In this document: one piece after another, positions 47,218 to 50,316 of the stretch
Layout: each line of letters opens with the position of its first letter
Numbering within the stretch: the stretch's first letter is position 1
Source: Schistosoma haematobium
Taxonomy: Eukaryota > Platyhelminthes > Trematoda > Strigeidida > Schistosomatidae
Direction of reading: 5' to 3'
Assembly: GCF_000699445.3 (NCBI RefSeq)
Contig: NC_067199.1
Span: 36,130,902 to 36,194,901 of the forward strand
DNA length: 64,000 nucleotides
Made by a program: the position numbers and the translations under genes
Notes under the pieces: generated by a model
The model's input: only the letters and a program-made list of their open reading frames with translations
The model's database searches: none
Told to the model about the DNA's origin: nothing

Positions 47218-50200
47218 TCACACATCTCTTACTACACCTTCTCTCATTCGCACCATCACTGTTCTTACCAACCCATCTCTATCTGTCTCGCACTTATCAA
47301 CCCGTCCCATTGGCCACGAACCCCGAGTAGTTGCATCGTTAGCCACTAGAACTACATCACCTTCTTTTAAGTTTCTGTGTTTGCAAAACCATTTCTGCCT
47401 CACTTGCAGTAAAGGAATGTACTCTTTTATCCATCGACGCCAGAAGGTATTGGCTAAACAATTTACCTGTCTCCATCGCTTTGAATACCTATCCGCAACA
47501 CTACACTCCATTCCTAAACCATCACAGTCTCTTAGTAATAACAAAGTGTTTGGCGTGAGCGCCAAATCATCCTTTTCATCTGACGTCACAGGAACGATTG
47601 GGCGGTTGTTTAAAATTCGTTCTACCTCCACAAAATAAGTTGCCAAACTATCATCGTGTAATATTTGCCCGTTGGAAATAAATAGTAAAATCCTCCGAAC
47701 AGACCGTATTAATCTCTCCCAAACTCCGCCTCGATGGCTAGCTAGTGGGGAGTTGAAACGCCAGCGTATACCCTTCGATACTGTTAAGTCGTTTATTTTA
47801 TGCTTGTCCCACACACTCATATTAGCCCGTAATTCGGAAGTAGCCCCGACAAAGTTAGTTCCATTGTCGCTATAGATTTCCTTAGGAGTTCCTCTCCTTC
47901 CTATGAAACGTATTAAAGCCATTATAAAAGCATCAGTACTCAAATTGAAAGCTACTTCCAAATGTACTGCACGTGTTTGGAGACACGTAAACAGGCATCC
48001 ATATCTTTTTTCCTCACTTCTTCCCCGACGAACTATCAGCGGCCCAAAATAGTCTATCCCGACGGAGGAGAAGCAAAACCAGCCTTGCTGCACTCGACAC
48101 TTAAGGAGAGGTGTCATCATCTGTTGGCCTAATTTGGCTTTCGCGCGTATACACCTCACACATCTACCTATCACTCGTTTAACTGCACTGGTTCCTTTAA
48201 CAATCCAATAATTTCGTCGTATGGTAGCTAACACTTGTGATGTACCGGTGTGACCTTCTAGGTGGTGGTGTCTAATAATAAGTTCTGTTACGAAGTGATG
48301 ACTGGGTAAAATTACCGGATGTCTGATTGAGAGTGGATAATCCGAGTAATTTAATCGTCCGTCGACACAAAGCAATCCATCGATTAGCGTAGGTGAAAGA
48401 TTTTTTAGCTCTTTTATATCAGTTGCGCTTTCGCCATTGCATCGAGACACTTTTACTGCTTCCCCATACACTTCCTTTTGCACTAAGGCTAATACCTTGT
48501 GTTCAGCTGCATCCAATTCATCAACTGACAGATAGCCCACACTTAGGGACCTGTCATCGTGATGGGAGTACATGATGGTTATATAGGTCACGTATCTTCT
48601 GAGCCATGCTACCGCTTTAATCAGCTTTATCAAATTTGAGTGATATAGCAGAATTGGACTTAAGCTATATTTTAGCGCAACTGCGTTGGTCATGTGGCAT
48701 CTTTTAAATTCAACATTTTCCGGGGGGTTTTCGCACATAAGCGTCAGTGTTCCTACCGACTCCCTCTTCCTTAAGAAGGAAGGACCCTCAATCCAGTTCT
48801 TTAAATCTAGCTCCTTCCGTATGCCTCGTGATGTCCAGTCAGCAGGATTTTCATTGGATTCTACGTGCCCCCACTGGTCCACAGATGTTAAATGATGAAT
48901 AGCGGCCAGACGATTAGCCACGAAGGTGGAATACCTACTATCTGTATTTTTTATATAGTACAGTACTATCATAGAATCCGTCCAGAAGTGAGTCTTGTCA
49001 AACACATGAGGAAGGTTCTTATTTAAAACTTCCCCTATTCTAGCACTCAATACTGCCGCTGCTAGTTCCAGTCTAGGCACAGTTACCTGTTTTATAGGTG
49101 CCACTCTAGACTTACTATAGAGTAAAACGATGTCCGGTGGTTTGCGCCTGAGTATGTTCCACGAATAGACAGAGGAACTGCAACCTGTCTTAGTCAGGAT
49201 CTTCATCATAAAGTCGGCAAGAACTCTACCAGCAAGGTCCAATCGCAAAACAGTATAAGGCAACGCATAATCTTCATAAATCGGAACTGTGTGGGTCACA
49301 CCGTCACCTAAGTTCAACACTATACCAGTTGTACGACCAGATGTACATAGTGACAACAACGTTTGAGTAGCAGCACACGTACCTGGTGTATTAAAAGTTT
49401 CAAACATGATCCTTGTCATCTCACGGTTTGCCTTCGGGTTCAATGAAACTTCTCTCAACAACACCGGATGTTTCTCTGTTGCCACTCGCAACCCTTTGTA
49501 GAATGTGTGGTACCATATCTTCTCCATATCACCCCACTTAGTCGCAATACCATGTTCAATTCGGTACTTCAGTGTCAGGATAACACGTTTCGATCGAGCA
49601 TCGTCCCCCACATGACTATCCTTTCCATCCATTCCCACAGTCACTACTTGATGTCTAGTTCTTCCAACAATAGAGGGTAATACGGCTCTGGTGGCATCAT
49701 TTTTGGTGAGGCCAGCTTTACACATACCAGACTCATTGCCAATAACAGGGGCAGCAATGTCTTCCTCAGCCACTCCTCTAGGTAAAGGAACAATATTGTA
49801 ACTTTCATTGAAGTAGGCATCGCGCTCTACTGTTGGAAGTTCAAGACCTACACTTAGAGATTCCAAGGTCACTTCCTTCTTCTTCGTTCCTGGATAATCC
49901 AGCAGTTTTGACTTTTCTAGAGACTTTATCCTAAGGTCATGAGAAGGACTTACGAACCTGTGAACGTGCTCCTTTTCTCTGTCATCACAGTTAGAAACAG
50001 AAGATAACTTACTACACGTGCTTTCGTTCAGCCTTAACGACCCAAATTCTCTCTGAAAGCACAGTAGTTGCTTCCTCTGTCTATCTTTCAAGTCTCTCAT
50101 TTCTAATAATTGTCTTTCTTTTAACTCTGCTAAGGTAATCCTAGAGCTAACTTTGCTATGTCTACTTACTAAACTAACATTAGAGCCATGACATGAAAAT

Positions 50201-50316
50201 GCATCTAATTTGACTTGCCGTATATCTGGAGGTGAATCCGATTGCATTTCTCTGTGACCCAATGCGAAGTTTTCGTTGATCTTATTGCGCTTTCCAGGCA
50301 TTCCAGTATATTTCAC
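47218..50316 (-). CDS. Chimeric BEL/Pao protein: gag-like N-terminus, actin half, RNase H end, integrase
   Basis: An open frame of 1032 codons; the first true ATG is codon 6 (50301), the codon at 50316 being GTG. Residues 60-91 form a charged coiled coil, taken as a gag remnant. Residues 183-383 (49770-49168) align with actin from just after its start to about residue 203: SGMCKAG, PSIVGR.RHQ, ILTLKY.IEHGI, MEKIW.HTFY, NPKANRE, IMFETFNTP, SGRTTGIVL, GDGVTHTVPIYE, LRLDLAGR and MKILT. Actin D11 is Gly193 and D154 is Asn335, so nucleotide binding is unlikely. Residues 399-500 are the RNase H end (VPRLELAAAV, FWTDS, FVANRL, NPADWTSRG). Residues 680-880 hold the integrase zinc site (H685/H689, C719/C722) and D755, D817, E867. 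A DUF5641-like tail follows. No protease or YXDD is present. Confidence 0.9.
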   Translation of the reverse strand: MKYTGMPGKRNKINENFALGHREMQSDSPPDIRQVKLDAFSCHGSNVSLVSRHSKVSSRITLAELKERQLLEMRDLKDRQRKQLLCFQREFGSLRLNESTCSKLSSVSNCDDREKEHVHRFVSPSHDLRIKSLEKSKLLDYPGTKKKEVTLESLSVGLELPTVERDAYFNESYNIVPLPRGVAEEDIAAPVIGNESGMCKAGLTKNDATRAVLPSIVGRTRHQVVTVGMDGKDSHVGDDARSKRVILTLKYRIEHGIATKWGDMEKIWYHTFYKGLRVATEKHPVLLREVSLNPKANREMTRIMFETFNTPGTCAATQTLLSLCTSGRTTGIVLNLGDGVTHTVPIYEDYALPYTVLRLDLAGRVLADFMMKILTKTGCSSSVYSWNILRRKPPDIVLLYSKSRVAPIKQVTVPRLELAAAVLSARIGEVLNKNLPHVFDKTHFWTDSMIVLYYIKNTDSRYSTFVANRLAAIHHLTSVDQWGHVESNENPADWTSRGIRKELDLKNWIEGPSFLRKRESVGTLTLMCENPPENVEFKRCHMTNAVALKYSLSPILLYHSNLIKLIKAVAWLRRYVTYITIMYSHHDDRSLSVGYLSVDELDAAEHKVLALVQKEVYGEAVKVSRCNGESATDIKELKNLSPTLIDGLLCVDGRLNYSDYPLSIRHPVILPSHHFVTELIIRHHHLEGHTGTSQVLATIRRNYWIVKGTSAVKRVIGRCVRCIRAKAKLGQQMMTPLLKCRVQQGWFCFSSVGIDYFGPLIVRRGRSEEKRYGCLFTCLQTRAVHLEVAFNLSTDAFIMALIRFIGRRGTPKEIYSDNGTNFVGATSELRANMSVWDKHKINDLTVSKGIRWRFNSPLASHRGGVWERLIRSVRRILLFISNGQILHDDSLATYFVEVERILNNRPIVPVTSDEKDDLALTPNTLLLLRDCDGLGMECSVADRYSKRWRQVNCLANTFWRRWIKEYIPLLQVRQKWFCKHRNLKEGDVVLVANDATTRGSWPMGRVDKCETDRDGLVRTVMVRMREGVVRDV

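What the first reader, a model, noticed from the sequence alone, without database searches (positions are those of the whole stretch)
47218..50316. Actin half captured inside a BEL/Pao retrotransposon ORF
Seen: one uninterrupted minus-strand frame runs from a coiled-coil N-terminus through about 200 residues collinear with the N-terminal half of actin (residues 183-383 of the ORF) into the RNase H end and a full DDE integrase. Known: BEL/Pao Gag-Pol carries protease and RT at this point. Inference: a spliced host actin mRNA was captured and replaced protease and RT, giving a chimeric Gag-actin-integrase protein. I know of no described LTR retrotransposon with a cytoskeletal gene in its pol.
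Basis: partly seen in the sequence, partly recalled or inferred. Interest (0 to 1): 0.96.

Follow-up and report, generated by a model that had tools for sequence, protein, structure and literature searches.

The report
Jumping gene carrying half an actin
In the blood fluke Schistosoma haematobium a family of jumping genes carries half of a host actin gene where its copying enzyme should be; the piece was most likely captured once, was probably passed on between related elements by recombination, and sits in copies so young that their two ends are still almost identical.

Summary
ORF 47218-50316(-) holds 201 residues homologous to the N-terminal half of actin (PDB phmmer 8.5e-86), between a BEL/Pao Gag N-terminus and a BEL/Pao RNase H remnant plus integrase, inside two 684-bp LTRs differing at 1 site. 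It is a family: 16 window-type units at 10 loci here, with the same two junctions at 10 of 10, and the same chimera in predicted proteins of S. haematobium (another assembly), S. bovis and S. guineensis; so no assembly artefact. Ten further loci, mostly decayed or truncated, and an S. spindalis protein belong to an older Gag-protease-actin form without RT or integrase. Shared junctions and a shared codon loss make one capture likely. Actin took the place of RT only; Gag core and protease went separately, probably when an old actin core recombined into a young autonomous backbone. The closest host actin genes are intronless, so 'spliced mRNA' is not shown. The actin half lost ATP-site residues and shows no purifying selection on the window-type stem: probably a passenger in a non-autonomous element mobilised by intact sisters. 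Closest precedents: maize Bs1 and retroviral v-fgr.

The parts
50342..51025 (-). 5' LTR (684 bp, TG...CA)
   Evidence: 1 mismatch in 684 to the 3' LTR
49824..50341 (-). Start of internal region and N-terminal Gag remnant (before the DUF1759/Gag core), young parent-like sequence
   Evidence: 92-95% identical to elements without actin
47218..50316 (-). Chimeric ORF, 1032 codons (GTG at 50316 listed; first ATG at 50301)
49771..49823 (-). Old-core prefix: element sequence from just upstream of RT (RDAYFNESYNIVPLPRGV), 32% diverged from 3 of 4 parents (the fourth aligned over 23 nt only)
49168..49770 (-). Captured actin coding segment (actin residues 2 to about 203, one codon missing)
49111..49167 (-). 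Old-core 3' end: start of RNase H remnant, 20-21% diverged from 4 parents
48973..49152 (-). C-terminal part of Pfam Peptidase_A17 (lies after RT in the BEL/Pao Pol protein P0004)
47221..49110 (-). RNase H remnant and integrase, young parent-like sequence
48136..48288 (-). Integrase H2C2 zinc-binding domain
47746..48015 (-). Integrase catalytic core match (rve, below curated cut-off); D755, D817, E867 of the ORF all present
47230..47481 (-). DUF5641
47039..47058 (-). Purine-rich stretch next to the 3' LTR, likely polypurine tract
   Evidence: role inferred
46355..47038 (-). 3' LTR (684 bp)

Best explanation
The window holds a copy of a non-autonomous BEL/Pao retrotransposon in which half of a host actin coding sequence sits in place of the reverse transcriptase, most likely put there once by template switching during reverse transcription, and predicted to be copied by the enzymes of intact sister elements. 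Step 1 (inferred from shared junctions): a BEL/Pao element took up the 5' half of an actin coding sequence like the C7 host genes, joining its own pre-RT sequence at the actin start codon and rejoining in RNase H at a shared GGTTAC, and spread as a Gag-protease-actin element that lacks integrase. Step 2 (inferred from mosaic divergence): an old actin core, with 53 nt before and about 57 nt after the actin, recombined into the backbone of a young autonomous element, on the left at a GTAGAGC stretch (removing Gag core and protease), on the right in homologous RNase H sequence; this gave the window type, Gag N-terminus - actin - integrase. Step 3 (inferred): the window type still exchanges flanks with autonomous elements, as expected if their RNAs share particles. 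The actin half itself is probably a passenger that leaves the frame open to integrase and has no actin function.
For: Actin segment. Multi-copy: 16 window-type units at 10 loci among the 57 Actin-family matches, all 10 loci fetched and mapped (a lower bound if one search missed any). Recent mobility: LTR pairs differ at 0-1 of 684-685 sites in 5 of 5 single window-type elements with both LTRs, with exact 5-bp target duplications in 4 of those 5 (window: 4 of 5 bases). Other species: P0001, P0002, P0003 and the older form P0028. Old form: 12 further Actin-match loci fetched; 10 (L036-L045) show actin core next to Gag/protease and/or the 3' tail and LTR, with no match to RT or to integrase; 2 (L046, L047) match neither element nor actin at DNA level. 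Capture joins: same in 10 of 10 window-type loci, one unit per array, and in the 5 old copies read out, bar point changes. Lost codon: K present in 4 of 4 host actins printed, absent in the window, P0001-P0003 and P0028 and not seen in 5 of 5 old copies aligned. Mosaic: 1.3-7.6% from 4 parents in the flanks, against 32% (3 of 4; the fourth aligned over 23 nt only, 2 differences) and 20-21% next to the actin. Exchange with parents: the RNase H-integrase data reject monophyly of the window type (AU p 0.002), while the actin cores of 10 window-type copies group with 100% support. Passenger: window-type stem has 0.086 changes per site at codon positions 1+2 against 0.053 at position 3; pN/pS among 9 copies 0.86 in actin, 0.45 in RNase H-integrase; D11 lost in 20 of 20 rows, array units counted apart (residue roles recalled).
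Against: No transcript, protein or mobility evidence was available. DNA-level gene conversion could mimic recombination between RNAs. An ancestor holding Gag, protease, actin and integrase together, later trimmed two ways, is not excluded, though the divergence mosaic disfavours it. The branch joining host and element actins has few changes at positions 1+2 (0.031 against 0.146 at position 3, ratio 0.21); it cannot be split here into host and element shares, so early constraint on the captured actin is not excluded. Plain chimera-host dN/dS is 0.38-0.45. The N region has pN/pS 0.77 among window-type copies, hardly below the actin's, so low constraint is not peculiar to actin. Junction microhomologies are short and have mutated since. 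The window copy's own target duplication is imperfect (CTTAG/CTTTG).
Confidence: 0.81

Rival explanations
1. The actin half is functional: it is kept because it ties the Gag or integrase complex to the host actin system, for example through the D-loop, helping particles or pre-integration complexes move.
For: The actin frame is free of stops and frameshifts in 12 of 15 window-type units laid out, at 8 of 10 loci (L019 with in-frame deletions; L017 and both L023 units are broken); an open actin frame is also present in S. spindalis, bovis and guineensis proteins; the host-element branch has a low position-1+2 rate.
Against: No excess of silent change on the window-type stem; pN/pS 0.86; D11, and D154 or D157, changed in 20 of 20 rows; a neutral simulation gives a 7-27% chance of no stop for 98-45 substitutions, so an open frame alone is no evidence.
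Confidence: 0.1
2. A single ancestor carried Gag, protease, actin and integrase, and the two present forms arose from it by separate deletions, without recombination with the parents.
For: Both forms share the capture joins and the bases between actin and the RNase H remnant.
Against: Flanks of the window type are 1.3-7.6% from parents while sequence touching the actin is 20-32% away; window-type RNase H-integrase sequences are not monophyletic (AU p 0.002). No copy with all four parts was seen among the loci fetched.
Confidence: 0.12
3. The chimera is an assembly artefact or a single chance insertion of an actin pseudogene into one element.
For: None found; tandem arrays at C1:22.0 Mb could contain assembly errors.
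Against: 10 loci with different flanks, an independent S. haematobium assembly and three more species. RNase H sequence of the element follows the actin directly in all 10 window-type loci.
Confidence: 0.01

Closest known systems
Autonomous-type BEL/Pao elements of the same genome (L013, L014, L028); Sinbad and Saci-1 are named BEL/Pao elements of S. mansoni (PMC554778, passages)
   Same: LTRs (97-98% identical), Gag N-terminus, pre-RT sequence, RNase H-integrase, short target duplication (exact in L013 and L014, 4 of 5 bases in L028)
   Different: They have Gag core, protease and RT where the window element has half an actin; comparison with Sinbad was by integrase spacing only
Maize Bs1 retroelement (host gene transduction)
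   Same: LTR element carrying host coding sequence inside the element (PMC13317346 passages)
   Different: Plant Copia-type element (recalled) with three other host genes; here actin, BEL/Pao, an animal, with older and younger forms and backbone exchange
v-fgr of Gardner-Rasheed feline sarcoma virus
   Different: An acute transforming retrovirus with a captured kinase (recalled), not a dispersed genomic family
Host actin genes C7:17.09 and 17.11 Mb (L029, L030)
   Same: 83% nucleotide and 72% amino-acid identity over about 198 residues
   Different: Complete, intronless, ATP-site residues intact

Membership tests
BEL/Pao LTR retrotransposon | LTRs with TG...CA and a short target duplication | tested here: met
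   TG...CA; exact 5 bp in 4 of 5 single window-type elements with both LTRs; window copy 4 of 5 bases
BEL/Pao LTR retrotransposon | Pao-type A17 domain, H2C2 and DDE integrase with wide second spacing | tested here: met
   A17 tail, H2C2, D(61)D(49)E; Sinbad D(62)D(49)E in PMC554778
BEL/Pao LTR retrotransposon | Reverse transcriptase between protease and RNase H | tested here: not met
   RT absent, actin in its place; so it is a non-autonomous derivative, not a complete member
BEL/Pao LTR retrotransposon | Gag core (DUF1759), zinc knuckles and protease | tested here: not met
   absent in the window type; DUF1759 found by Pfam in P0028 and Gag/protease DNA in 8 of 10 old loci (L042 and L045 lack it in the stretch fetched); knuckle and protease motifs read by eye in P0028
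BEL/Pao LTR retrotransposon | Placement in the BEL/Pao clade by RT phylogeny | not tested
   no RT in the window element; parents' RT not put in a tree
Actin | Sequence homology to the actin family | tested here: met
   Pfam 1.9e-43; PDB 8.5e-86
Actin | Complete length and ATP-site aspartates D11, D154, D157 | tested here: not met
   only residues 2-203; D11 lost in 20 of 20 rows, D154 in 15 of 15 window-type rows, D157 changed to E in 5 of 5 old rows (roles recalled)
Actin | Actin fold of the captured half | tested here: inconclusive
   mean pLDDT 33 from 10 sequences, not usable
Retroelement transduction of a host gene (Bs1, v-fgr type) | Host coding sequence fused in sense inside element ORF, flanked by LTRs | tested here: met
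Retroelement transduction of a host gene (Bs1, v-fgr type) | Captured from spliced RNA | tested here: inconclusive
   closest host genes have no intron; the C1 actins with an intron are more distant
Non-autonomous LTR element mobilised in trans | Shares LTRs and end sequences with an RT-bearing family and has recent insertions | tested here: met
Non-autonomous LTR element mobilised in trans | Copied by the autonomous element's enzymes | not testable with these tools
   no RNA, particle or mobility data

The most novel reading that the evidence does not exclude
The actin half is a retained part of the element's own machinery: a Gag-actin or actin-integrase fusion lets schistosome retrotransposon particles use the host's actin system, and this is why the cassette survived in both the S. 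spindalis and S. haematobium lineages and was moved on into a fresh backbone.
Probability: 0.08. Interest if true: 0.88.

Novelty: new variant of a known kind. Interest (0 to 1): 0.62.

Why it matters
Capture of host genes by LTR elements is known to me mostly from plants and from acute retroviruses, usually as end products. Here, in an animal parasite, the likely host source, RT-bearing parents, an older Gag-protease-actin form and a younger actin-integrase form with near-identical LTRs lie in one genome, so the steps of capture, loss and re-shuffling can be read and tested. Predicted proteins of such elements carry the Pfam actin label in public databases and could be mistaken for actin genes.

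Tried and rejected
Assembly artefact: rejected. Actin replacing protease: rejected. The 53-nt prefix as actin 5' UTR: rejected; it matches pre-RT element sequence, although TAGAG before the start codon also matches L030, so the exact switch point is ambiguous by about 10 nt. Open frame as proof of selection: rejected by simulation. Chimera-host dN/dS of 0.38-0.45 as proof of constraint in the element: not accepted, because the low ratio lies on the host-element branch, which cannot be split, and not on the window-type stem. Structure prediction of the actin half gave mean pLDDT 33, so nothing was inferred and no fold search was made. Limits: a genome-wide DNA count of the actin core did not complete, so counts rest on the Actin-family search (92 of 92 candidates scored); of its 57 matches I fetched those listed above and the host actins L029-L035, while the remaining short or distant matches (taken as host actin-related exons) were not fetched. 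One search scored 44 of 964 candidates. Searches list only the best 120 of 285 and of 470 proteins, within a length range, so absence from S. mansoni or S. japonicum is not shown. RT phylogeny, primer-binding tRNA and expression were not examined. The search for v-fgr papers gave only the reference title.
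Full report
What was checked. The window lies in genome G000, contig C5, 400.27 Mb in 163 contigs, which fits S. haematobium Shae.V3 (163 scaffolds, 400.27 Mb in PMC8846543, passages seen). The reported frame exists: 1032 codons, 47218-50316, minus strand. It carries Pfam Actin (residues 186-377), the end of Peptidase_A17, H2C2, a sub-threshold rve and DUF5641, and residues 183-383 align collinearly to actin residues 2-203. It lies between two 684-bp LTRs (50342-51025 and 46355-47038) with one mismatch.

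It is a family. A search of the whole genome with the ORF gave 54 matches (44 of 964 candidates scored), among them three further full-length copies at 95-96% identity. The 57 Actin-family matches include 16 window-type units at 10 loci: the window, L009, L010, L011, L012, L016, L017, L019, a tandem array of six units at C1:22.02-22.04 Mb (L020-L022) and one of two at C3:32.74 Mb (L023-L024); all 10 loci were fetched and mapped, their flanks differ, and both capture joins are the same in 10 of 10, one unit per array read, apart from point changes. Five of the 10 are single elements with both LTRs; their LTR pairs differ at 1, 0, 0, 1 and 1 sites of 684-685 (window, L009, L010, L011, L017), and 4 of 5 have exact 5-bp target duplications. 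So these are recent, independent insertions. Elements without actin (L013, L014, L015, L018, L025-L028) share the LTRs, the Gag N-terminus and the RNase H-integrase part at 92-98%, where those parts lie in the stretch fetched.

Other species. A protein search found the same chimera in S. haematobium from another assembly (P0001, 98%), S. guineensis (P0002, 88%) and S. bovis (P0003, 87%), and a different arrangement in S. spindalis (P0028): Gag N-terminus, DUF1759 and Gag/protease, then the actin segment, then the element's 3' end without integrase. P0028 as a query in this genome found old copies of that arrangement. Twelve further Actin-match loci were fetched (L036-L047). Ten (L036-L045) show actin core next to Gag/protease and/or the 3' tail and LTR, with no match to RT or integrase; L042 and L045 are cut in the actin core and show no Gag, the tail of L044 was not matched, and the stretches fetched for L041-L045 are only 2.3-3.5 kb. 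Two (L046, L047) match neither element nor host actin DNA.

What was replaced. In elements without actin the sequence ...IVERDTYFDEGHWIVPLPWRVERN... precedes RT and ...LFCDASESGYGAVAYSWNIPK... opens RNase H. In the chimera the first runs to ...VERDAYFNESYNIVPLPRGV and then actin from its second residue; actin ends at ...GCSSSV and the frame continues YSWNI. Actin therefore sits in the place of RT, not of protease. The left junction lies within about 10 nt of the actin start codon; the right one at a GGTTAC shared by element and actin. The five old copies read out (L036-L040) show the same two joins with point changes. All four host actins printed have NREKMT; the window, P0001-P0003 and P0028 lack that K, and five of five old copies aligned showed no extra codon. 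One capture is the simplest reading.

Second event. Compared with four actin-less elements, the window's Gag N-terminus differs by 3.7-7.6% and its RNase H-integrase by 1.3-5.3% in eight blocks, but the 66 aligned positions before actin differ by 32% in three of four (the fourth aligned over 23 only, 2 differences) and the first 56 after it by 20-21%. The old form reads ...AGCATAGTAGAGCGCGAC before actin (L039), the actin-less form ...AAGGTAGAGCTAAG in Gag: the window joins the two at GTAGAGC. The likely history is recombination of an old actin core into a young backbone. Trees agree: the actin cores of the 10 window-type copies used group at 100%, whereas monophyly of their RNase H-integrase part is rejected (AU p 0.002), L017 and L019 falling with parents there, and L009 and L016 fall among parents in the Gag part with low to moderate support (39-77%). 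This is what co-packaging with autonomous RNA would give; DNA-level conversion is an alternative.

Source and function. The nearest host actins are the intronless pair at C7:17.09 and 17.11 Mb (83% nucleotide, 72% amino-acid identity); actins with an intron (C1:81.56 and 81.58 Mb) are further away. Hence splicing of the source RNA cannot be judged. Chimera against L030 gives dS 0.34-0.37 and dN 0.14-0.15. On the tree the branch between hosts and elements is poor in changes at codon positions 1+2 (0.031 against 0.146 at position 3) and cannot be split into host and element shares; the window-type stem shows 0.086 against 0.053, and the branches of the old copies have ratios of 1.0-3.1 except the short tip of L036 (0.35). 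Among nine copies pN/pS is 0.86 for actin, 0.77 for N and 0.45 for RNase H-integrase; among five parents 0.41 for N and 0.34 for RNase H-integrase. D11 is lost in 20 of 20 rows, D154 and G13 in 15 of 15 window-type rows, D157 is E in 5 of 5 old ones (roles recalled). The actin frame is unbroken in 12 of 15 window-type units laid out, but a neutral simulation keeps it free of stops in 7-27% of runs for 98-45 substitutions, so openness proves little. The passenger reading is favoured. The RNase H remnant lacks the DAS motif of the parents; the integrase triad is intact, so integrase is the only enzyme that the window ORF could plausibly encode (inference). A structure model was too poor to use.

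Place among known things. Host-gene transduction by LTR elements is known (Bs1: PMC13317346, passages), and actin has been caught before by a retrovirus (v-fgr; reference title in PMC10741856). Among the rows listed by searches no title or abstract start reported actin in a BEL/Pao element; several lists were capped. In the BEL/Pao survey PMC3118150 the word actin does not occur in the main text held, nor in the Sinbad paper PMC554778, nor in the Shae.V3 genome paper. The library is open-access only. I rate this a new variant of a known kind, with unusual clarity of its steps.

Noticed in passing
L020-L022 (G000 C1:22.017-22.041 Mb) and L023-L024 (C3:32.736-32.745 Mb): Head-to-tail arrays of the actin element sharing LTRs: six units with period about 3985 bp, 0-3 mismatches per 3300 bp between the five units compared, and two units on C3, where the outermost flanks carry the same 5 bases (AAGAT); likely unequal exchange between LTRs.
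   Followed up: partly
window 11017-11094 and 38981-39058 (+): Two Rfam mir-3492 matches lie antisense inside reverse-transcriptase-like ORFs (10441-11259 and 38603-39535, minus; RT likeness by eye); the miRNA family may really be a retrotransposon fragment.
   Followed up: no
window 1354-1399, 6446-6491, 16394-16439 (-); 16643-16688, 18083-18128 (+): Five type I hammerhead ribozymes, as expected of schistosome SINE-like repeats (recalled).
   Followed up: no
window 30799-32299 (-): Two overlapping ORFs look by eye like RNase H and integrase of a Gypsy-type element, broken between frames.
   Followed up: no
L014 (C149) and L027 (C150): What seems the same RT-bearing element with identical printed flanks on two small contigs, though of different length between N and RNase H; probably a duplicated or allelic scaffold.
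   Followed up: no
window 50324-50341 (-): The 18 bases after the 5' LTR (GTTCTCAAACGAACAGTG) do not begin with TGG as a usual tRNA primer site would (recalled); L039, L040 and three parents differ only at the last of them.
   Followed up: no
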